A model generated the notes under the pieces. It saw only the letters and a program-made list of their open reading frames with translations. It was not told the origin of the DNA and did no database searches. The translations under genes were made by a program, and so were the position numbers. 64,000 nucleotides of DNA from Cytobacillus pseudoceanisediminis (GTDB lineage: Bacteria > Bacillota > Bacilli > Bacillales > Cytobacillaceae), in assembly GCF_023516215.1 (NCBI RefSeq), contig NZ_CP097350.1, positions 62,001 to 126,000 of the forward strand, in the 5' to 3' direction. This document shows, one piece after another, positions 29,364 to 54,573 of this stretch; the first letter of the stretch is position 1, and each line of letters opens with the position of its first letter.

Positions 29364-29430
29364 ATACAAAAATTCATGTGCAAATATGAATGTTATGGTA
29401 AAACAAGGTAAATTAAAGATGATAATGGGA

Positions 29431-29473
29431 GGGCCCCAATCAGCACATTATATGGCTGCATTTGGGTCTTTTT
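29431..29473 (+). terminator. leader terminator-like hairpin
   Basis: CCCCAA and TTGGG, with the inner arms CAGC and GCTG, form a stem ending in TCTTTTT. It lies just before GGGGGG and the ATG of the next gene at 29492. Confidence 0.55.
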
Positions 29474-29491
29474 GTTTGGGGGGATATTTAA

Positions 29492-29777
29492 ATGTTAGCT
29501 TTAAAGCGTGAGGAGGAACAAAGAAAAAGTTGGTTGAGAAAGTTCTATCAAATCAATATCAAGGGGAGGTTTATATATTAACCCCTGGACGAATATGGAA
29601 GTCACTGGTTTTAAAATATTATAAAAAAGAAATGATATGGGACAAATATCAATTGAACAACTAGTACATTTACTAGAAGAAAAAGGAGGGGTAAAGTATG
29701 GCCAAAGCTATAAGTTAGTGAGATACCCGATAGAAGAATGCTTGAACTACATAGCTAAATTAGCAAAGAAAAAATAG
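29492..29777 (+). pseudogene. small hypothetical protein, frameshifted twice
   Basis: From ATG 29492 (MLALKREEEQRK) a missing A in an A5 run (29524-29528) and a second indel near 29632-29640 split the gene. The restored protein of about 95 residues reads LVEKVLSNQYQGEVYILTPG, then MGQISIEQLVHLLEEK and YIAKLAKKK. It is helical and basic, with an HTH-like part. Function unknown. Confidence 0.4.
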
Positions 29778-29815
29778 TAAAAATAGAAATTTAGGCTTGT
29801 TAGGAGGGAAAGGGT

Positions 29816-30565
29816 ATAAATAAAATACGGATAACCAAAATTTTGTTAATCGTTTCAACTGCTTTAATGTTAATCTCCTGTTCTGCCCCAGGTCTTACCT
29901 ATGAAGATGCACCAAAGTATGAAATAAAACACTCAAATTTTGATATACATGACCATTTCTTTGGAAATATAATATACCAAAGAATGAAGAAAATGGAAAC
30001 TATGAGATAAAAACCATTCTAAAACCAATTAATAAAAAGGAAAAAACTGAATCCGAAACTAGAAGGAAGGTGACAGTAACTTCCGTGATTGATGCTGATA
30101 GTATCTGATATTTCGATCCTCTGCTAAATAAAGAGGTAACTGGAAGATTATTGGGGATAAATGCGCCCGAGGCAACCAAAACTGTTGAAAAATTCGGACC
30201 TCTGAAGGCACAGCATTTTTAACCAATCTAATAATGGGTAAAGAAATTGAGATTGAAAGTGATCCCAATGCTGATATTACAGATAAATACGGGAGGTACT
30301 TAATTCACGCATTTATTAGTGGAAAAAGTATTCAACAAATTCTCATCTTAGAAGGATTAGTAAGAGTCGCTTATCTATATGATGAATACAACTATACCGA
30401 TCTATATCTTGCGGCGGAAAAAAGCAAAAATAGTCGGCCAAAATATTTGGAGTATCCCCGGGTATGTAGATAAAAAGAATGGTTTTGACATGGATGTTGT
30501 AATCAGAAGATTTGAAGGGAAGTATTGTAGAAAAAGCAGGAGAATTCATGAATATATTAAAGTAG
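29816..30565 (+). pseudogene. decayed staphylococcal-nuclease-like lipoprotein
   Basis: The start looks like ATA 29816 after AGGAGGG, where an ATG would be expected. A lipoprotein signal (LLIVSTALMLISC) is clear. The body matches thermonuclease (SNase): VTVTSVIDADS, RLLGINAPEATKTVEKFG, EGTAFLTNLIMGKEIEIE, DKYGRYLIHAFI and EGLVRVAYLY. There is a TGA at the Trp-like position after VIDADSI and at least four frameshifts (about 29965, 30200, 30415, 30510). SNases degrade DNA/RNA; surface-anchored ones occur on conjugative plasmids. More lesions here than elsewhere suggest real decay. Confidence 0.65.
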
Positions 30566-39196: not shown

Positions 39197-40032
39197 ATGC
39201 TCATTAAAGAATTAAATTATTCAACTGTAAGGATTATATCGAAGTTAAGTAATGGTAATAGCAGTACTGGGACTGGGTTTATTATAAGATTTGCTGAACA
39301 GTACAGAGCAGAGCAATATTTAAACGTGCCATCAATTGTTACTAATAAACATGTAATAGATGGAGCCATTGAGGTAACCGTAAGATTTCACGCTGCTAAC
39401 GCAAATGGAAAAAAATAGACGACCAATGTGAGTTTACAGTGCCCCCAAGTCTCTTTTTCAAACATCCTGATCCCAATGTTGATTTATGCGCAATGCCGAT
39501 TGCAGCTCTGTACAAAATGGCAGAGAAAGATCAAATTAAACCTTATTATTATGGACTACGGCTTCAACAGATACCAAAAGGGGATGAATTGAATAAGTAT
39601 CACCCAGCTACAGATATAGTTGTTGTTGGTTATCCTAATGGACTCTGGGATGATGTAAATAATTTACCTATATTCAGGAAAGGTATATTGGCAACATCTC
39701 CATCTGTTATGTATAAAAATACTCAGGAATTTCTAATTGATTGTGCAATCTATCCAGGTTCAAGTGGATCACCAGTCCTTTCGGTTGAAACTCTTTTCAA
39801 TAAGGACACCTTTGAACCTTTTTTATCTGTAAAACTACTAGGAATAGTATACGCAACATATCAACATAACGCACAAGGTGACTTAAGTATAATAAATATT
39901 CCAACAAGTATTAATACACCTGTTCCAAATCATTTAGGTTTGGTTATAAACTCTATTAGAATACATGAATTAAACAATATTATTAGTGACTATTATTCAG
40001 AGGGGACTCTTCAGAAATACATTATGCGTTAG
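39197..40032 (+). pseudogene. trypsin-like serine protease, frameshifted
   Basis: The start is ATG 39197 behind AAAAGGAGG. The S1 triad is visible: His in IVTNKHVIDGA, Asp in HPDPNVDLCAMP and Ser in IYPGSSGSPVLSV. There is no signal peptide, so it may act in the cytoplasm. The frame breaks at an A7 run (39409-39415); eight A would give one protein of about 279 residues. Similar proteases appear in bacterial defence and signalling modules, but there is no partner gene here, so the role is open. Confidence 0.75.
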
Positions 40033-40077: not shown

Positions 40078-40125
40078 TAAAAAAACAAGGCCTATTATTT
40101 ATTATAAAAGGGCACTTGTTTTTTT
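40078..40125 (+). terminator. terminator after the protease gene
   Basis: ACAAGGCC pairs imperfectly with GGGCACTTGT around an AT-rich loop, then TTTTTTT. Confidence 0.6.
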
Positions 40126-40151
40126 AAACTCATATGGTTCTTTTACATACA

Positions 40152-40156
40152 AAATA
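40152..40156. repeat. Tn3 target site duplication, left copy
   Basis: AAATA here is repeated exactly at 54569-54573, directly outside the right terminal repeat. Five-bp duplications are the rule for Tn3-family transposition. Confidence 0.85.
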
Positions 40157-40194
40157 GGGGTATAGTCAGGAAAATGCGGATTTACAACGTTAAG
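40157..40194 (+). repeat. Tn3 left terminal inverted repeat
   Basis: 38 bp starting GGGGTATAGTCAGGAAAA. It matches the reverse complement of 54531-54568 except at positions 7, 8 and 34. Confidence 0.9.
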
Positions 40195-40207
40195 GAAGTT
40201 CCAATAT

Positions 40208-40252
40208 AAAAAGCCCAATTTCTCGGTATAACGCAAAAGAAATTGGGCTTTT
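40208..40252. terminator. bidirectional terminator inside the left transposon end
   Basis: AAAAGCCCAATTTCT pairs with AGAAATTGGGCTTTT. It isolates the cargo from outside transcription. Confidence 0.8.
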
Positions 40253-40283
40253 GGGTATTCCTAAAATGAGAACTCAATCTTTA

Positions 40284-40478
40284 TTAAACTCCACTAATAT
40301 CAGTTTCAATATGTTGATTTCCTAAAAGTAATACCATAATTCGATCAAATAGTTCTCTGGAGGAGACAGCTCTCAATTTGCTTTTTCGACGAAAAGGCAG
40401 AACCCTTTAAAGAATTCTGTTGCCAGGAACTAATACTACTATAGAGCTAGCAATAAAATTGACTAATGTTTTATTCAT
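40284..40478 (-). pseudogene. small ORF with in-frame stop
   Basis: On the minus strand ATG 40478 follows GGAAGGAG. The peptide MNKTLVNFIASSIVVLVPG has a membrane helix but meets TAA, then continues in frame (LPFRRKSKLRAVSS, FDRIMVLLLGNQHIET) to 40284. It may be a small transposon gene or a decayed one. It lies downstream of the DUF3109-like gene on the same strand. Confidence 0.35.
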
Positions 40479-40542
40479 GTTCTCCTTCCAATCAACAGTT
40501 CTATGAAATAGGAAATGTCAAACTTTTAATACATTTCCTATT

Positions 40543-41454
40543 CTAAAATGAGAGCATTCCCTTTTCAGTTAGTAGTTCACTTTTTGATCTAATAAACTCA
40601 TATGTCTCATTACCATATAATTCTTTTATAAATCGTTTTTCTTGTTCGTAAGCAGGAACGTATTCATCTAAAACAAACACACCATCAGGAAGTGATGCTT
40701 TACTATATTCGCTCTGTGGTTTCCTAGTATCCATGATGAGTTTACGATGATTTTTGTTCAAACAGATATAGTTCAAATCAAACTTATTCCATCTGCTGAA
40801 ACCTTTATTATCATTAACTGTTGATAAAATAACTTCATCATTTTCAGTTAGTTTTACGACATCAAGTACTGTATTATCATCAGCACCAAAAACAAAATCA
40901 CTATTATCTGATAACTTTACTATATCTAAAGGATACATCATACAACCCTTGGGTTTTAGTTTTGTGTAGTTTATATTGTTCTTTATTGCATAACCATGAA
41001 TTGCACAACCATGTGAGCCTTTTTCACCTATTTTAATTGAAAATATACACTTCCCACAATGCTCTATAAAGCTTCCGTTTTTATCTAATATCCCGTTTTC
41101 ACTATAATATTTTTTTGATTTAAAATAGTCGGAATTTGATTGAGTTTCTTTAAAAATATTATCTACGTGGTTGTATACCTTATTAATATCTTCCTTAGTT
41201 GGGGGATAGGGAGAGCCATCACAACAAAGTGAGAAATGCGCTAAGTGACAATTCATACAATCTAGATTAACGGGTCTGCTTAGAGATTTAATATCAAAAA
41301 GATTCCCCATAAATTCAAATACACTAATATTGTAATTTTGTGAGATGTATTTATCTAAGTTCTCTTTTAAAACAGTTGCCATTGGAAAGTTAATGTAAGC
41401 ATACTCCCTCGCTTTTTTATTTGATAATATACTAAACCCTCCTCTCTTTTTCAA
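40543..41454 (-). CDS. Cys-rich DUF3109-like (YkgJ-type) protein of the RiPP-like locus
   Basis: This protein has about 300 residues. It has CMNC (66, 69), CC (77, 78), HCGKC (133, 136), GCAIHGYAI (150) and KPKGCMMYPLDIV (171), the metal or Fe-S cluster pattern of DUF3109/YkgJ proteins. The C-terminal half has no known motif. The start is uncertain: TTG 41454 opens the frame, but GAGGAGGG lies just inside it, so a later start (possibly at the ATA 12 codons in, or ATG near residue 25) is likely. It is transcribed away from the precursor gene, from a shared 130-bp intergenic region. A role in metal-dependent peptide modification is inferred from position. Confidence 0.65.
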   Translation of the reverse strand: MKKRGGFSILSNKKAREYAYINFPMATVLKENLDKYISQNYNISVFEFMGNLFDIKSLSRPVNLDCMNCHLAHFSLCCDGSPYPPTKEDINKVYNHVDNIFKETQSNSDYFKSKKYYSENGILDKNGSFIEHCGKCIFSIKIGEKGSHGCAIHGYAIKNNINYTKLKPKGCMMYPLDIVKLSDNSDFVFGADDNTVLDVVKLTENDEVILSTVNDNKGFSRWNKFDLNYICLNKNHRKLIMDTRKPQSEYSKASLPDGVFVLDEYVPAYEQEKRFIKELYGNETYEFIRSKSELLTEKGMLSF

Positions 41455-41524
41455 ATAGATTTAATAAAATAATTATAAAACAACAAAATAAATAATTACA
41501 ATATTTTAAATTAATAGAAAATAT

Positions 41525-41556
41525 TTGAAATTTAAAACAGAATATTGTATTATAAT
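41525..41556 (+). promoter_or_regulatory. promoter of the precursor gene
   Basis: TATAAT at 41551-41556 with a preceding TGTAT (extended -10 type). TTGAAA at 41525-41530 is spaced 20 bp, which is long. It is the only strong candidate before the peptide gene. Confidence 0.45.
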
Positions 41557-41584
41557 TCTGAATTTGGAAAAAGGAGGTGGGCTG

Positions 41585-41710
41585 ATGTCTAAAATCAATG
41601 AAAACATAAAGCTATTCTCAAAGAACCATTTTAATGAAAAAGGAAGACGTGTTGTTGTCGTCCTAGTAATGCAATTACATGATGAAGGTAATAAAACAAG
41701 CGAGGAGTAA
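41585..41710 (+). CDS. candidate RiPP precursor peptide (41 residues)
   Basis: ATG 41585 sits 5 nt after a near-perfect AAAGGAGGTGG, so expression should be high. The peptide has a leader-like charged N-terminus (MSKINENIKLFSKNHFNEKG) and a distinctive valine-rich stretch (RRVVVVLVMQLHDEG), then a polar tail NKTSEE. There is no Cys, and only Ser, Thr, His, Met, Asn and Asp as reactive side chains, so lanthionine chemistry is excluded. The genes after it encode a HExxH peptide-modification-type protein, a flavin oxidoreductase and an exporter. That the product is a modified peptide is inference. Confidence 0.6.
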   Translation: MSKINENIKLFSKNHFNEKGRRVVVVLVMQLHDEGNKTSEE

Positions 41711-41724
41711 GCAGTGATTTGATT

Positions 41725-41762
41725 GGGGCAAGCCCCCTATTAAGTCATAAGGGGCTTGCCCC
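41725..41762 (+). terminator. perfect 12-bp stem-loop between precursor and modification genes
   Basis: GGGGCAAGCCCC at 41725-41736 is the exact reverse complement of GGGGCTTGCCCC at 41751-41762, with a 14-nt loop. There is no T-run, so it is more likely a partial stop or a 3' stabiliser that keeps precursor mRNA above enzyme mRNA. Confidence 0.7.
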
Positions 41763-41796
41763 TAACCAGTAATTATCGAAAGGGGTTGTAAAAATA

Positions 41797-42672
41797 TTGA
41801 GTAGCGTTGTCTCAAAGAAAACAAACCTAACTTTTTTAAACAAAAGGGAAATTAACAGAAACATTGATGCTGTTATTGATTATCATTTTGGGGAAGGTAC
41901 TAGTAGCGGAATTCCTGATAATGAAAAAAAGGATACTTTATTCAAACATTAAACGCCCTTCAACAATCACAGATTCCTTTTGAATTGGATAATATTAAGA
42001 TAATTTTTGATAGCGATATTCTGTGTGAACATTTAATCAATAATTACTTAATAGAAAAAAAGGATACCTTAGATGATAAACATTTATTCAACGAAGAGGA
42101 ACGCAGAGAAATTGTTTATAATGTTGAAAAAGCGTTAGATTTAATAAAATTACTCCATCCTGATCTCCACTACCTAATTAATAAACACATTGGAACCCTC
42201 TACTTTATTAAGAAAGAAGGATTTGGTGGGGGTTCTGTCTCTGGTTTATTAGGCTTAATATGGCTTAACCCCTAAGAGATGGACCGTGATCGACTATGCT
42301 GAAGCACTTTACCATGAATTTATTCATAATAGTTTATTCTTGGATGACATGGTCAATTGTATTTTCCCAGATCCCCTTTCTTGTGAGAATGAAGAAGCTC
42401 TTACTACGTCGACGATTTTAAAAAAGAAGCGGCCATTAGACAAATCTTTCCACGCTGCTAATGTATCTATTGGAATAATGCATATGTACCATTTGTTAAG
42501 CGATAAAAAGAAATCTAGAATGTACGAAGAAGATCTGAAACGTACTATCGTAGAAATGAATGATAAAACTCAATTCTTAGGAGAACGTGGACTAGAAATA
42601 CTTAAAGAAATGAATCACTTTATCAATACTTATGATTTCGATAGTATTACACTATCTCTAAGCGGTAAATGA
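41797..42672 (+). pseudogene. HExxH motif peptide-modification protein, frameshifted twice
   Basis: From TTG 41797 (RBS AAAGGGG) three frames join into about 291 residues. The key part is the HExxH motif in EALYHEFIHNSLFLDD, followed by RPLDKSFHAANVSIGIMHMY, which matches the HEXXH motif-containing putative peptide modification family (TIGR04267-like). Some members are thought to be 2-oxoglutarate/iron-dependent hydroxylases acting on RiPP precursors. Break 1 is an A7 run at 41924-41930 (eight A gives KKGYFIQTLNALQQ). Break 2 is a C4 run at 42269-42272 (three C gives IWLNPKRWTVIDY). Both are single-base changes. It follows the precursor after a stem-loop. Confidence 0.7.
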
Positions 42673-42785
42673 TTACTTGAAAACTATGCTTGCAGAGAAC
42701 TTTTTCTGCAAGCATATATTCCGTGCTGTCAATCTATTACAGAAAAAAATTTAAAAGGATCAATGGAAAGAAAGGTGTTTATTGA

Positions 42786-43785
42786 ATGGAATTAAGCATT
42801 CTTGATTTGGCTACTCTCGCTGTAGGGAAAACAGCAAAGGATGTTTTAGAGGATTCCACCAGATTGGCAAAGGCCGGAGAAGAATTTGGTTATACAAGAT
42901 TTTGGATCGCTGAACATCATAATATATCTGCGCTCTGTTGCCCATCACCTGAAGTTATGCTCGGATACATTGGTGCTAATACTGAAACTATCCGTCTTGG
43001 TTCTGGAGCTACACTTCTCCCCTACTATAAACCTTATAAAATAGCTGAAACATTTAATTTGCTTTCATCTCTATTTCCTAACCGAATAGATTTAGGAGTA
43101 GGAAGAGGTCCTGGAGGCTCTCCAGAAGCGAAGTTAGCTCTTTCGGATAATTTTTCGGAGCAAGCAAAAAAATTTCCCGATACTGTGAAAGAGCTTAAAG
43201 ACTTTCTTGATAATAGTTTCCCACATAAACACCCGTATTCGACTATAAATGCTTATCCAATCCCATCAGTTCCTCCACAATTATGGATTCTAGGAACTTC
43301 TTTAGAAAGCGCGAGGCTTGCAGCATTATACGGGGTCCCTTATGCATTTGGTCACTTTTTAAGTGCAAACAAAAGCTCAGAAATCATGAATTATTATCAT
43401 AATAATTTAAAAGGTAAAGAAAGCGGCATTAAACCGAAAACAATTTTTGCTGTTTTTGTGATTTGTGCAGAGACAAATGAACGCGCCCAGGAGCTTGCAA
43501 GAAGTGCTTTATTATGGGAGGTACAATTATCAACAGGCATTGGCGATAAAGGACTTCCGTCTTTTATAGAGTCAAACGGCTATACTTTTAGTCGACAAGA
43601 GATGGAATTAATAAGAAACTTTAAGAATAAAATGATAATAGGATCACCAACAGAAGTGAAAAAAACTAATAGATATACAAAATACATATAAAGTAGATGA
43701 AATTATGATCTTAACTAATACTTTCTGTTTTGAAGATAGGATAAAATCATATAAGTTAATTGCAAAAGAAGTGTTTTCCGTGTAA
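42786..43785 (+). pseudogene. LLM-class flavin-dependent oxidoreductase, frameshifted near the C-terminus
   Basis: The start is ATG 42786 after GAAAGGTG. The bacterial-luciferase-like TIM barrel is clear: MELSILDLATLAVG, FWIAEHHNISALCCPSPEVM, IRLGSGATLLPYYKPYKIAE, FPNRIDLGVGRGPGG and LWILGTSLESARLAALYG. The ORF stops at 43691 after an A7 run (43659-43665). With six A it continues KKLIDIQNTYKVDEIMILTN to a TAA at 43783-43785, giving about 333 residues, the usual length. These enzymes use reduced flavin and O2. In this operon it could oxidise the peptide, but it has many relatives in small-molecule metabolism. Confidence 0.78.
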
Positions 43786-43897
43786 TTATTACATAGCCGA
43801 ATTTAATTTTTTTCAAAGGAGAAGAATAGAGTAGAGGTGATTAAAATATGTAATCCTAATAAATAGTACTCAAATTATATGTAAAGGAGTATATTTT

Positions 43898-45144
43898 TTG
43901 CAAATAAAAACATCTTTCCGTTTTTTATGGATAGGCCAGTCAATTGCAAATTTAGGAGACATATTATATATAGTAAGCATAATTTCAATAGTGTACGAAA
44001 TCACTGGGTCTGCATTTTATATGGCTCTATTTCCTTTTGTTAATACAGTTTCAAGGTTTATTAGTGGTTTTATTGCTCCTATTCTTTTAGAAAGATATAG
44101 AACGAAGCCACTTTTGGCATTTTCACAGTTTGGTAAAACAATCATTGTATTAATGCTCACAGTAAATTCAATCTATCTTTTTTCAATAGATAATATAATT
44201 TTCACCTTTGTATTTGTAATGTTTATTTCATTTCTAGATGGGTGGGCTAGCCCTGCTAGAGATTCATTGATTCCCAGGTATTTCGATTCAGAGGAGAAAT
44301 TGGTTAAAGTAAATAGTTTTCTTTCTATAGTCGATCAGACAATCACTTTAGGAGGATGGCCAGCAGCTGGTATTTTAATCACTCTATTAGGATCAGGTAA
44401 TCTACTAATTATAACAACTATATTATTCGTTATTTCAACCATTTTTATGTTTTTAATTAAGGATTTAGATAGAATTGAGGATGAACTCAATAAAGACGAA
44501 CAAGAATCAGAAAAAATGACAAAGAAGGTTTTGCTGGAAGGATGGAATACAATATGGAAGACACCTTCTTTAAGAACAATTACGATTGTAGAATTTACGG
44601 AATCCATAGCAAATGTGGTATGGGTTGCAGCTATTCTGTATATCTATGTTGAAGAAGTTCTACAGGTTAGTGAAAATTGGTGGGGATATATCAATTCAAG
44701 CTTTTTTGCTGGTTTAATGATCGCTGGTTTTATTAGTTTAAAGTGGTCACAAACAATAACTAATAATTTGAGATTTGTAATCATTAGTGGAGCATTTCTT
44801 ACCAGTATTACTACACTTATTTTTGGATTAATTTCAACTCCTTGGCTCGCACTTGTCATTTCCCTTTTTTCGGTTTTGGTAGTCAAATTAAGGGAGTTGC
44901 TCAACAAACTATAGTCCAAACGAGTGTTAATTCAAAATTATTATCAAAGGTATACTCTGCACAGGATAGTATCGTCTTTGGAACATTTGGTGTTTCAACT
45001 ATTTTATTTGGGATATTTGCTGATCAATTTGGTGTGAGATTTACATTTTTATTAGCTGCATTTCTACTTTTCGCTTCAGCCTTTTTTGTCTCAATAAATC
45101 AAAAAACACTAAAACATATTAAAAGTGGGGAAATAAATAAGTGA
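43898..45144 (+). pseudogene. MFS transporter, frameshifted
   Basis: The start is TTG 43898 behind AAAGGAG. It reads as a 12-helix major facilitator protein of about 415 residues (FLWIGQSIANLGDILYIVSI, FVMFISFLDGWASPARDSLI with the MFS-type motif, later FGIFADQFGVRFTFLLAAFL). The frame changes at a T6 run (44865-44870); seven T gives LVISLFFGFGSQIKGVAQQ. It is the last gene of the precursor operon and ends at a strong terminator, so it is the likely exporter of the product. Confidence 0.78.
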
Positions 45145-45163
45145 TTTGATAATTGAAATAAAG

Positions 45164-45206
45164 AGCCTATGTCAAAGATTTTAATATTCAATTTGACATA
45201 GGCTTT
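45164..45206 (+). terminator. terminator of the RiPP-like operon
   Basis: AGCCTATGTCAAA pairs with TTTGACATAGGCT and ends in TTTT. Confidence 0.88.
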
Positions 45207-45286
45207 TATATTTTATTATTTTATCAAAATGCACACTTCCTCTTACAAGCTAATATTACCTTGCCCATTATTGGACTAAAGATCAA

Positions 45287-45862
45287 CTAATTGTCCGGAT
45301 CTGATAGCTTTCTGTATAATGAAGCTCTTGATACATTTGTGATTTCACAAATTTGATTTACAGTCATATTCCCTTCCTTATACAGCTTTACTGCATAATT
45401 CATTCCTGCGTGATTTTTATGATACTTCTTTAACCGACCTTTAAATTTTCCTTCTTTCTTAGCCAACTCAATCCCTTCACGTTGTCGCATACGAATAAGA
45501 TCTCGCTCTAATTGGTTAACACCAGCCATTACCGTAATTAAGAATTGGCTGTATGGATTATCTTCTGATAAATCTAGCCATGTATCTTTTAGTGATTTTA
45601 AGCTTCCCTTTTTACCTCGTATGTTATCGATTAATTCAAATAGATCTTGTGTACTACGAGTGATTCGAGTTAAGTCTGTAACATAAATGATGTCATCTTT
45701 CTGTAAATTCCCTAACATTCTTTGAAGTTGCTCGCGATCCTTTGTTGCTCCTGAAACTTTCTCTTCATAAATAATATCCATTCCGATCTCGTTCAGCTGC
45801 TGAAATTGCCTTGAAGTATTTTGGCTAGTCGAACTGACACGTATATAACCGATCTTTCGCAA
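45287..45862 (-). CDS. tnpR: serine resolvase of the Tn3-family transposon
   Basis: This 191-residue protein starts at TTG 45862 behind GAGGTGG; the longer frame from 45901 lacks an RBS. The catalytic Ser10 lies in IGYIRVSS, with VSGATKDREQL, VTDLTRITRS and AGVNQLERDLIRMRQREG. A C-terminal HTH (MTVNQICEITNVSRASLYR) binds res. It resolves cointegrates formed during transposition and is transcribed away from tnpA. Confidence 0.93.
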   Translation of the reverse strand: MRKIGYIRVSSTSQNTSRQFQQLNEIGMDIIYEEKVSGATKDREQLQRMLGNLQKDDIIYVTDLTRITRSTQDLFELIDNIRGKKGSLKSLKDTWLDLSEDNPYSQFLITVMAGVNQLERDLIRMRQREGIELAKKEGKFKGRLKKYHKNHAGMNYAVKLYKEGNMTVNQICEITNVSRASLYRKLSDPDN

Positions 45863-45935
45863 AAATACCACCTCACTTTTGAGACAAGTCTTGTGAGACA
45901 CTCTTAACTATGATTCTATCAGTCTACTTCACTTG

Positions 45936-45961
45936 TATCAATAGAGTACACTCTATTGATA
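45936..45961. promoter_or_regulatory. res subsite palindrome
   Basis: TATCAATAGAGT-AC-ACTCTATTGATA is a perfect 12-bp inverted repeat in the gap between the resolvase and tnpA starts. It fits a resolvase crossover/binding site that also overlaps the promoters of both genes. Confidence 0.7.
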
Positions 45962-46010
45962 TATAATTAAACTACTTAACTGAATAATTGCAGAAATGAG
46001 ATGATACTGT

Positions 46011-48293
46011 ATGAAAGTTGCAAGGGGTAGAGAATTACTTACACCAGATCAGAGACTGGCTCTAATGCAAATTCCTGAAGATGAATGGATATTGGGAACC
46101 TACTACACTTTTTCCAAACGAGATTTAGAAATTATAAATAAGCGAAGGAGGGAAGAAAACCGTTTAGGGTTCGCCGTTCAATTAGCCGTTCTTCGATATC
46201 CCGGTTGGCCATACACTCATATCAAAAGCATCTCAGATTCGTTCATACATTATATATCAAAACAAATTGGTGCCAGTCCATTTTCACTTAGTCTTTATCC
46301 TCAAAGAGAAAATACACTTTGGGATCATTTGAAAGAAATTCGAAGTGAATATGATTTTGTAACTTTTACCCTAAAAGAATACAGAATGACATTTAAGCAT
46401 CTTCATCAATTAGCTTTGGAAAATGGCGATGCCATTCATCTACTACATGAATGTATCGACTTTCTAAGAAAAAACAAAATCATACTGCCTGCTATCACTA
46501 CACTTGAGCGAATGGTGTGGGAGGCAAGAACAATGGCTGAAAAGAAGCTATTTAATACGGTTAGTCAGTCCCTAACAAATGAGCAAAAAGTAAAACTTGA
46601 AGAGATCATTACATCACAGCATCCATCCGAATCCAATAAAACGATTTTGGGTTGGTTAAAGGAACCACCGGGTCATCCTTCACCCGAAACATTTCTAAAA
46701 ATAATAGAACGACTCGAATACCTACGGAGAATGGAATTAGAAACGGTACAAATTAGTCATTTGCACCGCAATCGCCTTTTACAATTATCTCGCTTAGGTT
46801 CAAGATATGAGCCTTATGCATTCCGTGACTTTCAGGAACATAAACGATATTCGATATTAACCGTCTATTTATTACATCTTACTCAGGAATTAACGGATAA
46901 AGCTTTTGAAATTCATGATAGACAAATACTCAGTCTGTTATCAAAAGGCCGTAAGGCTCAAGAAGAAATTCAGAAACAAAACGGTAAAAAGCTAAATGAG
47001 AAGGTTATACACTTTACGAATATCGGACAAGCCTTAATTAAAGCAAAGAAGGAAAAATTAGACGTATTTGAGGTTTTAGAATCCGTTATTGAATGGACTT
47101 CTTTTGTCTCCTCGGTGGAAGAAGCACAAGAACTTGCACGTCCAGCCGACTATGATTATTTAGACTTACTGCAAAAACGATTTTATTCACTTAGAAAATA
47201 TACGCCAACGCTATTAAGGGTATTGGAATTTCATTCAACAAAGGCAAATGAGCCACTTTTACAAGCTGTTGAGATTATCCGAGGAATGAACGAATCGGGA
47301 AAGCGAAAAGTGCCTGATGACTCGCCTGTGGATTTTATTTCAAAACGTTGGAAAAAGCATTTATACGAGGATGATGGTACAACAATCAATCGTCATTACT
47401 ATGAAATGGCTGTTTTAACAGAACTTCGGGAGCATGTTCGGGCAGGAGATGTTTCCATTGTTGGCAGCAGACAGTATAGAGATTTTGAGGAATATTTGTT
47501 TTCAGAAGATACATGGAGCCAAACGAAGGAGAATACGAGATTATCAGTTAGTTTATCATTCGAAGATTATATGACGGAGAGAACCAGCAGTCTTAATGAA
47601 AGGTTAAAGTGGTTAGCTTCTAATTCCAACAAGTTAGATGGAGTTTCTCTTGAAAAAGGAAAGTTGTCGATTGCACGCTTAGAAAAAGATTTTCCAGAAG
47701 AAGCAAAGAAATTTAGTGCAAGCCTGTATCAGATGCTACCAAGAACAAAATTAACTGATCTACTTATGGATGTTGCTCATATTACAGGATTCCATGAGCA
47801 ATTCACCCATGCTTCTAACAATCGAAAACCGGATAAAGAAGAAACGACTATTATTATGGCTGCCCTTTTAGGAATGGGAATGAATATTGGTTTAAGCAAA
47901 ATGGCTGAAGCAACACCCGGCCTTACGTATAAACAATTAGCCAATGTATCTCAATGGCGCATGCATGAAGATGCCATGAATAAAGCCCAAGCTGTATTAG
48001 TAAATTTTCATCACAAATTACAATTGTCCTCCTATTGGGGCGACGGTACAACATCCTCGTCAGATGGTATGAGAATGCAGCTAGGTGTTTCATCACTTCA
48101 TGCAGATGCAAACCCACATTACGGGACTGGAAAAGGAGCCACCATCTACCGTTTTACTAGTGATCAATTCTCTTCTTACTACACAAAGATTATTCATACA
48201 AATTCAAGGGATGCAATTCATGTTTTGGATGGTTTGTTGCACCATGAAACGGATCTAAACATAGAGGAGCATTATACAGACACAGCCGGTTAT
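46011..48293 (+). pseudogene. tnpA: Tn3-family transposase TnpA, N-terminal part (interrupted)
   Basis: The frame from ATG 46011 runs to a stop at 48308, but the true tnpA sequence ends at about 48293, inside the codons for DTAGYT. It has the Tn3 N-terminal DUF4158 domain and the first part of the DDE domain (YWGDGTTSSSDGMRMQ with the first Asp, EEHYTDTAGY with the second). The catalytic Glu and the rest lie at 53807-54494, beyond the inserted Tn554-type element. Joined, the length is about 990 residues, normal for the family. As it stands the protein is dead. Confidence 0.9.
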
Positions 48294-48308
48294 CAATACC
48301 TTTTATAA

Positions 48309-48568
48309 AAAAGTTAGAATTTAAGTGTGTTCTTTCATTATAGACATGTATTTAAAGAATGATTTAAAAATGACTAACGATTCAAAGTCGTTAGCCATCT
48401 ATTCAATAATCGCGCCTGATTGCTTAATATCAGAAAATTGAGAAGGTATTGCGAAAGGCCCCTAAGTTATTTTACTAATACACACTTTTGCACAATTAGG
48501 GGTAGCAATAACATTTTATCCTAAGAGAAAAGAGATATGTCGGAACAACATAAGAATTAACCTTTACA
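48309..48568. other. left end of the Tn554-type element, non-coding
   Basis: This region holds a hairpin ACTAACGA-TTCAAAG-TCGTTAG near 48372-48396 and a possible second one (CCCCTAA/TTAGGGG, 48460-48506). No gene is seen. It probably contains the element's left recombination end and terminators for the Nudix gene. Confidence 0.4.
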
Positions 48569-49027
48569 TTATATTTTTTCAAGTTTTCCTTTTAATTCAA
48601 CCAACTTATTCTTAATAAAAGGGTCTGTTTCTTCAGGTAACTGTTCTAATTTAAAAAATTCAGCTTCAATTGCTTGATTTGCATCAGGCGTTACTTCACC
48701 TTCATAGTCCGTACATAAATATCCTATTGCGACGATGTGGTACTCATCTTCACCACCCTCTAGCTTCGTATAGAGATCCAGACCAGAATAAACACCAAAT
48801 AATTGTAATGAATTTATCGTTAGCCCTAAATCATCTTGTACATTTCTTTTAATACATTCCTCAACTGACTCATTTAACTGCAATATTCCACCGGGAACAC
48901 TCCATGTTCCACCTTTGTATCTATTCAGTAAAATTTCTCCTTGATTATTCATGATAGCTACACTTGGTCGTACTATTATCAAAGGCGAATTTCCAATCAT
49001 TTCCCTCATATTTTCACAATAATCCAT
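48569..49027 (-). CDS. Nudix hydrolase with degenerate Nudix box
   Basis: This 152-residue protein has the Nudix fold (GGTWSVPGGILQLNE, EECIKRNVQDDLGL). The usual REUxEE catalytic core reads RNVQDD, so two or three metal-binding Glu are changed to Asp or lost, and activity is uncertain. The reverse-strand RBS GGAGG precedes the ATG. It is cargo of the Tn554-type element; a nucleotide or cofactor pyrophosphatase role would be the family default. Confidence 0.8.
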   Translation of the reverse strand: MDYCENMREMIGNSPLIIVRPSVAIMNNQGEILLNRYKGGTWSVPGGILQLNESVEECIKRNVQDDLGLTINSLQLFGVYSGLDLYTKLEGGEDEYHIVAIGYLCTDYEGEVTPDANQAIEAEFFKLEQLPEETDPFIKNKLVELKGKLEKI

Positions 49028-49036
49028 AAAATCCTC

Positions 49037-49494
49037 CTACGAAAATTGATTAATGAACTTTGTAACATTTCCTAAACAACAACTACCTTGAGGATTATTT
49101 ATCTCGCACCCACACCGATTTTCTTTTATATTTTCACGAATATGTTCTACTGGATTAGGGGGAATTCCTTCTTCAGAATATTGTTTAATTTTTTTGTCCA
49201 ATCAAAACAATAACAAATTGGTGTAGTTACTGAGCCATCTTTTTGATGAACGGCTACCTTTATGTCAGATACAAGGTACTTTTTATTATTCGTATCAAAA
49301 TAGACTACATCACAGTCTTCAGTTGAACAAAAATAGTGATTTTCTTTAGCGTTTAATGTTTCTAATGCAGATGGTTTAAGTAATGATTTTAGTGTAATCA
49401 ATTTTACATTTTTAGCTTTATTTTTACATGATGGACAATTACCATTACTATCAATTTTTATTTCATTAACGTTACTACAACAATCTTCCATCAT
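49037..49494 (-). pseudogene. iron-sulfur metallochaperone (CopZ-N type), frameshifted
   Basis: The start is ATG 49494 after GGTGG. The Cys pattern DCCSN, CPSCKNKAKNV, FCSTEDCDVVYF, CYCFDW and, after a frameshift, [15 protein letters not shown] matches the putative iron-sulfur cluster-binding metallochaperone family seen next to mer genes in Gram-positives. The break is a run of seven T on the + strand (49189-49195); one more base gives [20 protein letters not shown]. The restored protein is about 152 residues. It likely carries a soft metal or protects the cell from it. Confidence 0.75.
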
Positions 49495-49547
49495 TCTTCC
49501 ACCTTTACAATTTATTATTTCTATAAAAATTCTTTTGCTTTCTTTTC

Positions 49548-49943
49548 TTAATCCATTAAAGTTTCGATAATAGGACATTCATAAATATTTTTGTTTTCAG
49601 GACATCTTTCTTTAAGGTCTATCAACATTTGTTCAATTTTTTTAAGATCTTCAATTTTACGCTCGATGTCCTCTAATTTAAGAACAGTGAAATCATATAT
49701 GTCACGGCACTTTGCTTCGTTGTGATCGACAACCCCTAGCAATTTATCAATTTCATTTAAGGTAAATCCCAATTCCTGCATCCGTTTTATGAAATTCAAT
49801 CGATCAACCGTTTGTAGGGAAAACATTCGGTATCCTTTTTTGGTACGATTAGGTTCTGGAATTAAACCTAAACGCTCATAATACCGAATGGTCTCCTTGT
49901 TAACACCACACCTCTCAGCCAGTTCCCCAATACGATATTGCAT
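49548..49943 (-). CDS. merR: MerR mercury(II)-type regulator
   Basis: This 131-residue protein has an N-terminal MerR HTH (YRIGELAERCGVNKETIRYY, GLIPEPNRTKKGYRMF), a dimer helix and Cys 79, 114 and 123. The spacing 35 and 9 equals that of the Hg(II)-binding Cys 82/117/126 in Tn501 MerR. It should bend the promoter of its target genes when mercury binds. The metallochaperone gene lies immediately downstream on the same strand; merA and merT are absent from this window. The 50-bp stretch past 49943 includes an ACCCTGTACCATAGTACAGGGT palindrome (49970-49991) that fits its operator. Confidence 0.88.
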   Translation of the reverse strand: MQYRIGELAERCGVNKETIRYYERLGLIPEPNRTKKGYRMFSLQTVDRLNFIKRMQELGFTLNEIDKLLGVVDHNEAKCRDIYDFTVLKLEDIERKIEDLKKIEQMLIDLKERCPENKNIYECPIIETLMD

Positions 49944-49969
49944 CTATCTCACCTCATATATAGTATAAA

Positions 49970-49991
49970 CCCTGTACCATAGTACAGGGTC
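49970..49991. promoter_or_regulatory. MerR operator palindrome
   Basis: ACCCTGTAC-CATA-GTACAGGGT is a perfect dyad 27 bp upstream of the merR start and spans the expected promoter spacer, as in MerR-controlled promoters. Confidence 0.75.
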
Positions 49992-50150
49992 AAGAAAAGT
50001 ATTATTTACTAATCGATCTTACTATCTTAAAAAAACTGCCATTTTTCAATAATCCTTATTCGGCAATTTGGCGTGATTGCGGAATACAACTTATCTTTTA
50101 ATGGCATTTTACACAAAAATATCAAACTGGGAAGGGAAAATTTTTGGAAC

Positions 50151-50534
50151 TTAAATTCCCTCATAAATCTTCCCAAATTGAATTTTTAGTTGTTCTTTAA
50201 TTTCTTTATTTTCCTTTTCTAAATGCTTGACTCGCTTTCGTAAGGAAGCGATAATTACATCTTTTGATGTGTCACTCATATTCCTTTTAACTTGTTTTAT
50301 TGAGGGGAGACCTTCTTGTTGTTTACGAAGTGTTTCGATTCGATCTCGGAGTTCTGTATTTCTGTATAGAAATGCCTTTGAAACCCCTGATTCTGCAGAT
50401 ACAGAGTTAAAATTGATTTTCAGTTGTTTTTTTATCATCCTTTTGATCGCTTCTTCAACTTTTTGAATGGTCTTTTCCGTTTTCAACTTTGCGTGTTTTA
50501 TAATACCTTCGGTATTTGGGTTTTCATTAGACAT
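50151..50534 (-). CDS. tnpC: Tn554-type TnpC
   Basis: This 127-residue protein is helical and basic, with an HTH-like N-terminal half (INFNSVSAESGVSKAFLYRN) and a C-terminal coiled coil (IIASLRKRVKHLEKENKEIK). TnpC of Tn554 is about 125 residues and affects orientation and frequency of transposition. Its start overlaps the end of tnpB by 8 nt. Confidence 0.88.
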   Translation of the reverse strand: MSNENPNTEGIIKHAKLKTEKTIQKVEEAIKRMIKKQLKINFNSVSAESGVSKAFLYRNTELRDRIETLRKQQEGLPSIKQVKRNMSDTSKDVIIASLRKRVKHLEKENKEIKEQLKIQFGKIYEGI

Positions 50535-52563
50535 TTTGCATCACCTTCTCACGTTCATCTCCAACATACTCACGTCTAGGTTTTTCTAAACCAAAGATAC
50601 CACCAGTATGTAGTAAACCACTTGCTAATTCTTTATATCTTTTTAATTTGGGTTCAATTAACTCAATGGAACGTAACCTTCCGGATTTTTTGTATACTTC
50701 AATATCAGCTTCCATTTTAAATATCTGTTCTTGATAATAGTCGAGAAAAGTCTTGTCAACGTGAAAACTTCGGCAATTGTTTTTAATACACGGTGGTTCC
50801 AAGGTCTGTTCAAGAAAATCACAATGAAGTTTTGGGCTTTTTACACAAAACCCATGATCTAAACGAATAGAGTCCATATTGTGACGTATCCACTCCAGTT
50901 CAACTCCATTTTCTTCAGCCTGTTGAGCTAAATCAGCGACAATAACTTCTCCATGAGTATCTAGTCTTACTGCGCCATTATCTCGAGCCTTTTCCCATTC
51001 ATCACGGAGTGTCTGGTCATGAATTTGGGCATAGACTAATGTCATTTCAGGACTGGCATGTGCCATCAGTTTTTGAACATGAAGGATATTCATTCCGTTA
51101 TTAATCAAATTAACACCGTAACGGTGTCGAAATGCATGATTTTTAAACCAATAAATTTCTCCATCCTTGTCCTTAATATTACATCTGTTTGCTAGTTTAT
51201 TAAGGTTCAGCTTAATGGAATCCTGCGATATGGGATTACCCATCCTTTTCCCTTTTAGTACTGGAAACAAATATTTCTTAGGGTTCGTGTCCAAAGAGTA
51301 TCTCTTTTTTGTAAGTTCTTGCTGCGCTAAGACAACATTAGCAATTTCTTCTGAAATAGGAACTTTATGATTTTTATAACTTACTTTCCTTTGATCTCCG
51401 ATAATCCACCAGCCATCTTCTTGATTTACTAAGCAGTCAATTTTAAGTGATAAAACGTCACTAATACGAAAACCTGTAGCTTCCATTAGAAGAATTATAG
51501 GTATATGTTCTGAGGAAAGTTCGTTAATATGGAAAACTAACTGTTCCCATACTTCATCCGGAATATATTTAATTTCATCAGCTTTTGCTCTTTTCTTTTT
51601 AGGGATATCCTCAATTGACAATAGTGAAATAACTGACTTTGTCGGGGCTTCTTCCCATTCGAATTTCTGTATATATGAGATAAACGTTTTAAGATCTATT
51701 AAAAAACGATTTACATAATTGTGATCTGGATTAATTAAATATTTTCCCTTTTTAATAGTGGAATGTCGTAAGTATTCAATATACTCTTCAATATCCATTC
51801 TAGATAGGTCGTTTAATTCTTTCCATTCAGGATGTTTATCCTTCAAAAAGGTGAAGAAAAACGAAAGTCTATTTAAATAACATATTGCTGTAGAAAAGCT
51901 GATGGATTGCTGCACAACTAGGCGAGTCTTTATATATTTTTTAAATAATTGTCTATAAGGTTGCGGAACCTTCGAAAAGTCTATTGAATACCTACTGATT
52001 GTATTGTTATAATTAATCTTCAATTTTCGTACATCCCAACAATCTTTATCTGTTTCTTCTCGTTCATCATAAAAGTGATAATAAAAATCATAAACTTGAA
52101 GAAATAGTCTAATATACAATGATGGTTGAACTGTTGGTGACATCCATGGTGATGACTTTTTCCGGTGTACAATCTCAACTGATTTTCCTTTCTCTACAAG
52201 AAATGTTCGATATTCTATTAGAAACTTTTCTTTCGGAATATCAATAATAGAATCTAAATTAGCATAATATCGAGAGATGAATTCTGTAAAAACTTTAAGA
52301 CATGGAGAATAATGCATAAAAGCATAGATAATCGAAATCCTTGTCTCCTGTAACCCCTTATAAAAATAATATTTTAGTTCATTTTTTAATCTAAGATTGT
52401 GTACCTTATCAAAAATCAATTTTCTATTCCAATCATAATGTTTATCCAAGAAGGGGCATTCTTGTACATTCCACACATCATTTGCCCAATATCCAAGTAA
52501 TGGTTCATTTATCTGTTCCAGATGGTGGGGAAGGGGTTTTACTTTGAATGTGCCATGTATCAT
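50527..52563 (-). CDS. tnpB: Tn554-type TnpB tyrosine recombinase
   Basis: This 678-residue protein is close to the length of Tn554 TnpB (about 630). The C-terminal catalytic domain has Arg in LMEATGFRISDVLSLKIDCL, His-x-x-Arg in NHAFRHRYGVNL, the His in LMAHASPEMTLVY and a nearby Tyr. A Cys cluster near the C-terminus (FCVKSPKLHCDFLEQ, PPCIKNNCRSFH) resembles a metal-binding end common to TnpB. Its start overlaps the tnpA stop by 1 nt. Confidence 0.9.
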   Translation of the reverse strand: MIHGTFKVKPLPHHLEQINEPLLGYWANDVWNVQECPFLDKHYDWNRKLIFDKVHNLRLKNELKYYFYKGLQETRISIIYAFMHYSPCLKVFTEFISRYYANLDSIIDIPKEKFLIEYRTFLVEKGKSVEIVHRKKSSPWMSPTVQPSLYIRLFLQVYDFYYHFYDEREETDKDCWDVRKLKINYNNTISRYSIDFSKVPQPYRQLFKKYIKTRLVVQQSISFSTAICYLNRLSFFFTFLKDKHPEWKELNDLSRMDIEEYIEYLRHSTIKKGKYLINPDHNYVNRFLIDLKTFISYIQKFEWEEAPTKSVISLLSIEDIPKKKRAKADEIKYIPDEVWEQLVFHINELSSEHIPIILLMEATGFRISDVLSLKIDCLVNQEDGWWIIGDQRKVSYKNHKVPISEEIANVVLAQQELTKKRYSLDTNPKKYLFPVLKGKRMGNPISQDSIKLNLNKLANRCNIKDKDGEIYWFKNHAFRHRYGVNLINNGMNILHVQKLMAHASPEMTLVYAQIHDQTLRDEWEKARDNGAVRLDTHGEVIVADLAQQAEENGVELEWIRHNMDSIRLDHGFCVKSPKLHCDFLEQTLEPPCIKNNCRSFHVDKTFLDYYQEQIFKMEADIEVYKKSGRLRSIELIEPKLKRYKELASGLLHTGGIFGLEKPRREYVGDEREKVMQNV

Positions 52564-53650
52564 TATTTATCTCTTCTTCCCATTTTTTTATTTGATTGAG
52601 CTTGTTTCCAGCTTTCACGTATGGTTTCATCGGATGAATGGATATAAGTCTGTATGGTTGTTTGAACGTGTGCATGCCCTAATAACCTCTGTATGATGGC
52701 AATATCTACTCCTGCTGCATGTAACTCTGTGGCATATGTATGCCGGAGCATATGAGGGGTAAAATCTATTTCTGTTTTTTTCTTCATCCTTTTAATTAAG
52801 GAACGAACAGAACCATCAGTCATTGGTTTACCACGATTAGGTCCAGTTAAGGAGATAAAAACATAATTGCTATCAATTTCGTAAGAATGAAAGTCTATTA
52901 GATAATCTTGAAAGAGATTCATAGTCTCAATAGATACATAAACTTTTCGTTTTTCTCCATCGGATGTTTTGGATTTCCTAACCGTAATAGCATTTTTACC
53001 TATATCAAAATCCTCTACCCACAGAGAAAGGGCCTCTCCAATCCGTAATCCCCCTTCATATAAAATACGGAATAATAATTCATCTCGTATATTACTGCAC
53101 GCATCATGGATCACTTGGATTTGATTTTTACTCAATGTTTTGATTAAACGCTTTGGTTCCTTAATCTTTAAAATGTTTTTATCATAAGAATTCCCTTTTG
53201 TAATGTGATGAAGGAAAGGTTTAAAAGGCTTAAAACGACCGGGGACTTGCTTTTTTAATTGATCATTTACATTTCCCCCATAATCCTCGCTACGAGACAA
53301 ATAGTCATAGAACCCTATTACACACGTTATGATGGTATTAACCGTTTTTTCTGATCGTTTCGCCAAGGTTTCTTCAAAATAAGTGACTTTTGTTGATTGA
53401 TCAGGAATTCTCAGCCAACCGATGAATTGAGCCAAAATATCAAGGTTTACTTCTTGATATTCTAATCCACACTCCTCTAGGAATTGAAAGTAAAGCTTTA
53501 GATGATAACAGTATGACTTTAGTGTGCTTTCAGCTTTTCCAATGTTATCTAAATACTTTATATACTTTGCAACTGAAGTAACTGGATACCCCCATTGTCA
53601 ATTAACAGAAATCTTTTCTTCTCATGAATGAGAACTTCTTGTACTTTCAA
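52563..53650 (-). pseudogene. tnpA: Tn554-type TnpA tyrosine recombinase, frameshifted near the N-terminus
   Basis: The open frame from 53435 holds the catalytic domain (Arg in LYEGGLRIGEALSLW, His-x-x-Arg in TPHMLRHTYATEL, LLGHAHVQTTIQTY). The natural N-terminus continues upstream in frame (YLDNIGKAESTLKSYCYHLK) and, after a missing base near 53584, reaches TTG 53650 behind GGGGGGAT. The total is about 362 residues, equal to Tn554 TnpA (361). Without repair the core-binding domain is lost. It works with TnpB in excision and insertion. Confidence 0.8.
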
Positions 53651-53806
53651 AATTATCCCCCCATGGTCTAAAATCATTTCGTTAGATACTATGTATCCAT
53701 AAAATTCATAGTATACATAATGAATCTATAAAGAAATGAAAAAGAAGTAGTTGATAACATAAGATACGTTAATAACTACTTCTAATACTAGTTCAATTAA
53801 GGCCGG

Positions 53807-54494
53807 CTACACGGACCAAATATTCGGACTGACCCATTTATTAGGATTTAAATTTGCTCCAAGAATAAGAGATTTATCAGACTCGAAATTATTTACAATA
53901 GATAAAGCAAGTGAATATCCAAAGTTAGAAGCCATTTTACGTGGACAAATAAATACAAAAATCATTAAAGAAAATTATGAGGATGTTTTGCGATTAGCCC
54001 ATTCTATAAGGGAAGGAACAGTTTCAGCATCCCTTATTATGGGGAAATTAGGGTCTTATTCAAGACAAAACAGCCTAGCTACAGCTTTACGTGAGATGGG
54101 CCGAATAGAAAAAACGATCTTTATTCTTAATTATATTTCGGATGAATCTTTAAGAAGAAAAATACAAAGAGGATTGAATAAAGGAGAAGCTATGAATGGT
54201 CTGGCAAGGGCTATTTTCTTTGGAAAACAAGGGGAACTGCGGGAACGGACGATACAGCATCAACTACAAAGGGCCAGTGCCTTAAACATCATTATCAATG
54301 CCATCAGTATCTGGAATACTTTACATCTAACAAAAGCAGTTGAATACCAAAAACGGACAGGTAGTTTTAATGAAGATTTATTGCACCATATGTCACCTTT
54401 AGGCTGGGAACATATAAATTTATTGGGAGAATACCATTTTAATTCGGAGAAAATGGTCTCATTAGATTCTTTAAGACCACTGAAATTTTCTTAA
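53807..54494 (+). pseudogene. tnpA: Tn3-family transposase TnpA, C-terminal part
   Basis: In phase with the missing end of tnpA this encodes TDQIFGLTHLLGFKFAPRIR, the catalytic-Glu region, KLGSYSRQNSLATALREMGR, RTIQHQLQRASALNIII and HMSPLGWEHINLLGEY, all typical of the Tn3 transposase C-terminus. It has no start of its own; an ATG-less frame begins at the junction. Its stop lies 37 nt before the right terminal repeat. Confidence 0.88.
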
Positions 54495-54530
54495 CGTTGT
54501 TAAAAATGGGGGAAACGCCTCGAAAATGTG

Positions 54531-54568
54531 CTTAGCGTTGTAAATCCGCATTTTCCTGACGGTACCCC
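54531..54568 (-). repeat. Tn3 right terminal inverted repeat
   Basis: 38 bp ending GACGGTACCCC, the reverse complement of the left end with three differences. AAATA follows at 54569-54573. Confidence 0.9.
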
Positions 54569-54573
54569 AAATA
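54569..54573. repeat. Tn3 target site duplication, right copy
   Basis: AAATA, identical to 40152-40156. Confidence 0.85.

What the first reader, a model, noticed from the sequence alone, without database searches (positions are those of the whole stretch)
40543..45144. Transposon-borne RiPP-like locus with HExxH and LLM enzymes
A 41-residue peptide gene with an excellent RBS and no Cys is followed by a HExxH peptide-modification-type protein, a flavin-dependent LLM oxidoreductase and an MFS exporter, with a divergent Cys-rich DUF3109-like protein. No radical SAM, LanB/C/M or YcaO gene is present, so it does not fit the usual classes. The valine-rich core RRVVVVLVMQLHDEG is an unusual substrate; hydroxylation or oxidation of Val, Asp, Asn or His is conceivable. 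The HExxH family is known to co-occur with RiPP precursors; its use with an LLM enzyme and a DUF3109-like protein on one mobile element may be new.
Basis: partly seen in the sequence, partly recalled or inferred. Interest (0 to 1): 0.85.

Follow-up and report, generated by a model that had tools for sequence, protein, structure and literature searches.

The report
Transposon-borne HExxH-modified peptide gene cluster
A jumping gene in a Bacillus-like bacterium carries a small peptide gene together with genes for an iron-type oxygenase, two further enzyme-like proteins and an exporter; related peptide-oxygenase pairs occur in many Bacillales, so this looks like a new, still uncharacterised family of enzyme-modified natural peptides.

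The parts
40152..40156 (.). target-site duplication AAATA, left
   Evidence: the same 5 bases follow the right end
40157..40194 (+). Tn3-family terminal inverted repeat, left (38 bp, GGGG...TAAG)
   Evidence: 35 of 38 identical to the right end; identical in the C. firmus DS1 and NTK034 copies
40543..41454 (-). DUF3109-branch Cys-rich protein, 303 aa
41585..41710 (+). precursor peptide, 41 aa, core M-Q-L-H-D at residues 29-33
41725..41762 (+). hairpin (12-pair G+C-rich stem) between precursor and HExxH gene
   Evidence: z -3.2 and -2.9; a stem lies here in 8 of 8 loci folded
41797..42672 (+). alphaKG-HExxH peptide hydroxylase gene (about 290 aa in relatives), three frame pieces in this window
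42786..43691 (+). luciferase-like monooxygenase, MsnO8 subfamily (TIGR03558), cut short by a frame break
   Evidence: 333 aa open in L012/L017/L028
43898..45144 (+). MFS transporter, nearest model 'ryptide export MFS transporter' (below its cut-off), two frames in this window
   Evidence: 415 aa open in L012/L017/L028
45287..45901 (-). serine resolvase of the Tn3 element
46011..48308 (+). Tn3-family transposase, 5' part
48293..53801 (.). insertion inside tnpA: two integrases and DUF6262 (Tn554-like by recalled knowledge) with NUDIX, zf_CopZ and MerR genes
53808..54494 (+). Tn3 transposase, 3' part
   Evidence: 91% DNA identity to L012 over 53808-54568
54531..54568 (-). Tn3-family terminal inverted repeat, right
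54569..54573 (.). target-site duplication AAATA, right

Best explanation
The stretch is a ribosomal-peptide (RiPP) biosynthesis operon carried as passenger of a Tn3-family transposon. The 41-aa precursor has an N-terminal recognition segment (N-I-x-x-F/Y...H-F/Y) and a C-terminal core around M-Q-L-H-D. The stand-alone alphaKG-HExxH iron enzyme binds the leader and oxidises the core, most likely by beta-hydroxylation of the strongly conserved His (and the adjacent Asp in this clade). A hairpin behind the precursor lets the precursor be made in excess of the enzymes. The MFS protein exports the product. In the window's subclade an LLM flavoprotein and a Cys-rich DUF3109 protein add or support a further redox step. 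Shown: peptide family, gene linkage, enzyme family and predicted fold, transposon. Inferred: enzyme-substrate pairing, site and type of modification, roles of LLM, DUF3109, hairpin and exporter. Leader removal is unassigned.
Against: No product or activity was seen. HExxH, LLM and MFS frames are broken in the window. LLM is in 2 and DUF3109 in 3 of 18 loci. His is missing in the cores of SPbetaL1, Neolewinella and P0133, and the WMMC1349 peptide lacks the M-x-I-H string altogether, so His may not be the only or the true site. Three distant HExxH loci (L056-L058) lack the peptide by profile. The SPbetaL1 and Neolewinella loci have no MFS in the stretch. No leader peptidase was recognised among the 16 proteins of the element scanned with Pfam.
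Confidence: 0.62

Rival explanations
1. Same RiPP operon, but the HExxH enzyme mainly cuts the peptide backbone oxidatively, as PflC/PosC do at ARMD, leaving a C-terminal amide; the x-R-M string would be the cutting signal, and the eight-core precursor would be diced.
For: PflC/PosC of the same family cut before A-R-M-D (PMC12636437). Many cores here read P-L-R-M or V-R-M; eight tandem cores in B. composti suggest processing at each repeat.
Against: In PosC the residue at the cut must be small: Ala or Gly are cut, Val is hydroxylated without cleavage, and R, M and D are each dispensable. Here the residue before R-M is Leu or Val, and the window's own core has Val, not Arg, before the Met.
Confidence: 0.17
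2. The HExxH protein is a zinc metalloprotease that removes the leader or degrades the peptide; the other genes are unrelated passengers.
Confidence: 0.08
3. The peptide is an unmodified signalling peptide; the locus is a quorum-sensing or regulatory cassette with an exporter.
For: HTH+TPR (RRNPP-like) regulators lie divergent beside the precursor, or separated from it only by a small LuxR-type gene, in L021, L022 and L024, and in L056 some kilobases off; the exporter resembles a streptococcal RiPP exporter, and ryptide operons of streptococci go with Rgg/SHP pairs (PMC13361665 passages).
Against: The constant neighbour is an oxygenase of a peptide-modifying family, not a receptor; only 5 of 18 loci have a TPR protein of this group in the stretch, one of them Rap-like; tandem cores fit a substrate.
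Confidence: 0.06
4. In this particular strain the operon is a decaying remnant: the frame breaks are real mutations. (Independent of the other readings.)
For: Four frame breaks in three genes. The HExxH gene is also interrupted in related copies: in C. firmus DS1 next to transposase-like ORFs, in NTK034 split over two contigs; G758 keeps a peptide beside a remnant of an HExxH gene. The Peribacillus copies too are in pieces.
Against: In the passenger part all gaps are shortenings of the window at homopolymer runs of 6 or more, with 0-3 substitutions per compared stretch, the usual error of long-read assemblies (recalled; the sequencing method of this genome is not known to me).
Confidence: 0.2

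Closest known systems
ChlB (fused radical SAM / alphaKG-HExxH enzyme; PDB 8s5f)
   Same: same HExxH-domain fold, metal-binding motif and family; His and Asp substrates known
   Different: ChlB's hydroxylation depends on a cyclophane made beforehand; here no radical SAM protein among those scanned and a different, 34-45-aa precursor family
PflC/PosC (Pseudomonas pfl and pos clusters)
   Same: alphaKG-HExxH protein not fused to another domain; core with an R-M pair near the C-terminus
   Different: pfl/pos carry an MNIO-nitroreductase fusion, a GNAT and an NHLP leader; none found here, and the residue before R-M is not Ala
PesO of the nitrilobacillin cluster (Peribacillus simplex)
   Same: Bacillales alphaKG-HExxH peptide hydroxylase with small precursors
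   Different: pes has an MNIO, an asparagine-synthetase-like nitrile synthetase and M16 peptidases; precursor motif R(V/T)DN
Ryptides of streptococci
   Same: the exporter is closest to the ryptide MFS model
   Different: exporter far below the model cut-off; no radical SAM protein among those scanned; no RRR core
LLM enzymes in lanthipeptide-type clusters (SprOR, TfDapJ)
   Same: luciferase-like flavoprotein in a RiPP cluster (passages)
   Different: those act with a dehydratase on Ser/Thr-derived dehydro residues; no dehydratase among the scanned proteins here, and this LLM is of the MsnO8 subfamily

Membership tests
alphaKG-HExxH-type peptide beta-hydroxylase (TIGR04267) | profile match over the curated cut-off (40 bits) | tested here: met
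   met by the near-identical open copies G008 (C. firmus DS1) and G023, 50.3 bits each; the window's broken pieces reach only 30.4-32.4
alphaKG-HExxH-type peptide beta-hydroxylase (TIGR04267) | HExxH plus further conserved Arg/His as in ChlB | tested here: met
   H174, E175, H178, R213, H220 invariant in 52 rows; these regions align with 8s5f
alphaKG-HExxH-type peptide beta-hydroxylase (TIGR04267) | ChlB HExxH-domain fold | tested here: met
alphaKG-HExxH-type peptide beta-hydroxylase (TIGR04267) | Fe(II)/alphaKG-dependent hydroxylation of a peptide | not testable with these tools
   needs enzymology
RiPP biosynthetic locus | conserved short precursor next to a peptide-modifying enzyme, with conserved leader and core parts | tested here: met
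   17 of 20 loci, all 17 close ones
RiPP biosynthetic locus | exporter-type gene in the locus | tested here: met
   MFS in 16 of 18 loci; best NCBIfam model is a RiPP exporter in 4 of the 4 scanned, below its cut-off
RiPP biosynthetic locus | modified product made from the precursor | not testable with these tools
   needs mass spectrometry
MNIO-coupled HExxH RiPPs (pfl/pos, pes type) | MNIO gene in the cluster | tested here: not met
   no MNIO family among the 16 proteins of the element scanned with Pfam
Ryptide system | exporter over the NF041056 cut-off (575 bits) and a radical SAM enzyme | tested here: not met
   205.8 bits for the intact relative; no radical SAM family match
DUF3109 (PF11307) | match over the gathering score | tested here: inconclusive
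   20.5 bits against 33.5, but the precomputed annotation lists PF11307 for P0102-P0108, and 49 class genomes hold proteins matching this branch's profile more weakly
Tn3-family transposon | 38-bp terminal inverted repeats, 5-bp target duplication, TnpA, resolvase | tested here: met
   TnpA is split by a later insertion

The most novel reading that the evidence does not exclude
A new RiPP class, found in many Bacillales, in staphylococci and in one SPbeta-like phage, whose only constant modifying enzyme is a stand-alone alphaKG-HExxH oxygenase acting on a sometimes tandem L/V-x-M-x-I/L-H(-D) core; in one branch it has recruited a dedicated Cys-rich DUF3109 protein (possibly an Fe-S redox partner or a second modifying enzyme) and an LLM flavoenzyme, giving a three-enzyme oxidative pathway for which the papers searched show no parallel. 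A product with neighbouring oxidised His and Asp might bind metal, but no Fur site supports that.
Probability: 0.3. Interest if true: 0.8.

Novelty: new variant of a known kind. Interest (0 to 1): 0.64.

Why it matters
AlphaKG-HExxH enzymes are a young family whose transformations, with those of MNIOs, 'at present cannot be predicted' (PMC13060819 passage). In the systems read about here (ChlB, BpmH, PflC/PosC, PesO) they work beside an MNIO or a fused radical SAM domain. Here is a near two-gene unit, small precursor plus HExxH enzyme, simple enough to test in E. coli, with many natural variants and an eight-core precursor. It also gives a functional lead for one branch of DUF3109, a name that no paper of the searched library holds.

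Tried and rejected
Metal-regulated (siderophore-like) reading: best Fur-box matches upstream of 14 precursors were no better than in 200 shuffles each (0 of 14 below P 0.05). Known structured RNA: no Rfam match at E up to 1 in 40100-46000. Terminator scan: 2 found in 40100-45300 against 2.6 expected, so the hairpin behind the peptide is not a standard terminator. Valine run as the conserved core: not conserved. Viral spread: 169 stretches of viral contigs matched a pattern, none encodes a relative; one of the phage records, SPbetaL1, does. DUF3109 branch on plasmids: no match. DUF3109 structure: AlphaFold2 pLDDT 60.7 with 8 sequences, no PDB match at E 0.001, by sequence only a chance-level PDB hit (E 0.16); its fold and cofactor stay open; VIA-align was not run on it. 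DUF3109 loci as one clade of the HExxH tree: no, 4 changes, at least 3 forced, and 114 of 500 shuffles as low; the neighbours of several rows (P0019, P0029, P0045, P0046 among them) are unknown. Co-location of P0022/P0103 (B. salipaludis) and P0020/P0104 (Priestia aryabhattai) rests only on equal organism and contig length. Distribution is patchy: TIGR04267 in 6 of 61 relatives, the A1 profile in 9 of 397 order and 9 of 398 class genomes, own genome counted, some hits partial or distant; 1 of 10 genomes of G080's genus and 2 of 26 of G602's. A first thought that 29423-30062 is a second Tn3 relic was wrong: it matches the DNA outside the element's right end in C. firmus AMY 5.1.1. Literature: all ten searches showed no description of this precursor family ('RMQIH' 0 papers); the library lacks most subscription papers. 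Papers: PMC12636437, abstract, sections 4, 6, 11, 13 and passages; PMC13060819, abstract, first of seven parts and passages; PMC12452194, PMC13252029, PMC12338566, PMC7794033, PMC13361665, passages only; others, search listing only.
Full report
What is there. The window lies on a 342,541-base second contig of a 5.69-Mb genome. Between 40157 and 54568 lies a Tn3-family transposon: 38-bp ends, 35 of 38 identical, flanked by AAATA on both sides, with resolvase (45287-45901) and transposase (46011-48308 and from 53808), the latter split by a 5.5-kb insertion with two integrases and DUF6262 ('Tn554-like' is recalled). The left end is the same in DS1 and NTK034, the right end in AMY 5.1.1 and NTK034. 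Passenger genes are a DUF3109-like protein (divergent), the 41-aa peptide, the HExxH gene, an LLM gene and an MFS gene.

Frame state. In the window the HExxH gene is in three pieces, the LLM is 301 aa against 333, and the MFS is in two frames. Against the relatives the window is shorter at five sites of the passenger part, four of them the frame breaks and one between genes, each in or beside a run of 6 or more equal bases, with 0-3 substitutions per compared stretch; one further gap, an extra base in the window against L028 only, lies at 45990 outside these genes. The relatives are open at the break sites, though no single Cytobacillus copy spans the whole HExxH gene: DS1 has residues 1-276 and then transposase-like ORFs, AMY 5.1.1 residues 91 to the stop, NTK034 two halves on two contigs. 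An assembly error in the window is the likelier cause; only resequencing can tell.

The peptide family. Homologous HExxH loci came from plasmid, phage and genome searches. Beside each close relative is a short ORF of the pattern N-I-x-x-Y/F...H-Y/F... followed by L/V-x-M-Q-I/L-H. In a leave-one-out test over 20 loci (near-identical partners also left out of the training), the 17 close loci had their best hit beside the HExxH gene, 8-339 bases off (E 0.0038 to 2e-23; 16 in the same direction, B. composti divergent); the 3 distant loci L056-L058 did not, although L056 and L057 carry other short ORFs there, one with G-P-L-R-M-F-A-T-D. A global search gave 30 proteins, all at E 1.3e-5 or better; they include query members, the window's own and some longer-start versions; two stand for 148 and 221 contigs. 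Of 38 peptides or cores examined, 37 fit a pattern that requires the Met (not WMMC1349); of the 22 distinct strings, 19 have His three residues on and 14 Gln one residue on. B. composti has 8 cores at exact 15-residue spacing, 7 of them LRMAIHD; Cohnella has 2. Tandem cores are a known mark of RiPP precursors (general knowledge).

Partners. Of 18 distinct loci compared, MFS homologues are in 16 (not in SPbetaL1 or Neolewinella), DUF3109 in 3 (window, Peribacillus, Brevibacillus antibioticus = G602), LLM in 2 (window, Peribacillus) (single linkage by blastp E 1e-5). Peribacillus frigoritolerans has MFS, peptide, HExxH, DUF3109 and LLM all on one strand, unlike the window's order, at 37-67% protein identity: the set is kept while the order is not. 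In that assembly, too, the four genes are in pieces or shortened frames. The DUF3109 branch is specific: in 398 genomes of the class, 51 have a match, but only G000 (470.7 bits) and G602 (417.9) are of this branch, both beside the HExxH gene; the other 49 reach 112 bits at most, and G602 has a generic copy too (97 bits). Only 7 proteins turned up among 655 candidates of the large database, the window's own and one distant (29%) included. Eight Cys are invariant in the 8 aligned proteins (66, 69, 77, 78, 136, 150, 171, 231), which suggests a metal or Fe-S site; this is inference.

Expression. A stem of 10-16 pairs lies between peptide and HExxH gene in 8 of 8 loci folded (of 17), with unlike sequences; z-scores -1.3 to -6.8. 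This fits making more precursor than enzyme. In three loci (L021, L022, L024) an HTH+TPR regulator lies beside the precursor or next but one to it, with a small LuxR-type gene between in L022 and L024, like the peptide-controlled RiPP operons of streptococci (PMC13361665 passages); none was seen among the scanned proteins of the window's element.

HExxH tree and cores. The P-L-R/K-M-Q-I-H precursors of Staphylococcus warneri, Exiguobacterium, Priestia, Geobacillus, CH30_1T and Anoxybacillus go with one well-supported HExxH branch (support 100/100); the M-Q/A-I/L-H-D precursors without Pro of the window, Peribacillus and B. antibioticus go with two other branches (cores). The fit is not perfect: B. 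composti (P-L-R-M-A-I-H-D) sits outside the first branch. By and large enzyme and core type go together, as expected of enzyme and substrate.

Verdict. A genuine RiPP-type operon on a transposon, with a stand-alone alphaKG-HExxH oxygenase as the central enzyme. It is a new variant of a known kind: the enzyme family is known; the precursor family and the DUF3109 and LLM partnership are not described in the papers searched. The modification is predicted, not shown.

Noticed in passing
48293-53801: Insertion with two integrases, DUF6262, NUDIX, zf_CopZ and MerR genes inside the Tn3 transposase gene.
   Followed up: partly
29423-30062: Stretch 84% identical to the DNA just outside the element's right end in C. 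firmus AMY 5.1.1; the match stops exactly at that end, so it may be an unoccupied form of that insertion site.
   Followed up: no
L055 7852-8229: 125-aa precursor with eight 15-residue tandem cores beside an HExxH gene and MFS in Brevibacillus composti.
   Followed up: yes
L010 3847-7203: Staphylococcus plasmid locus with one peptide, two HExxH genes and an MFS gene.
   Followed up: partly
L009 5309-6393: SPbeta-like phage carries a peptide-HExxH pair without MFS nearby; its core lacks the His.
   Followed up: partly
L056 6669-8844, L057 6435-7609: More distant HExxH loci with MFS and other short peptides (in L056 a duplicate pair; in L057 one with GPLRMFATD): perhaps a sister peptide family.
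   Followed up: no
L021 614-1927, L022 800-2050, L024 5222-6475: HTH+TPR (RRNPP-like) regulators divergent from the precursor; small LuxR-type HTH genes in L022 and L024.
   Followed up: partly
L031 6439-7543: Neolewinella (not a Bacillales genus) HExxH gene with an 80-aa ORF holding K-P-L-V-M-K-I upstream, E 0.0038 in the leave-one-out test.
   Followed up: partly
36004-37656 and 39439-40032: NlpC/P60 plus lytic-transglycosylase protein and a weak (below cut-off) trypsin-like match just left of the transposon.
   Followed up: no
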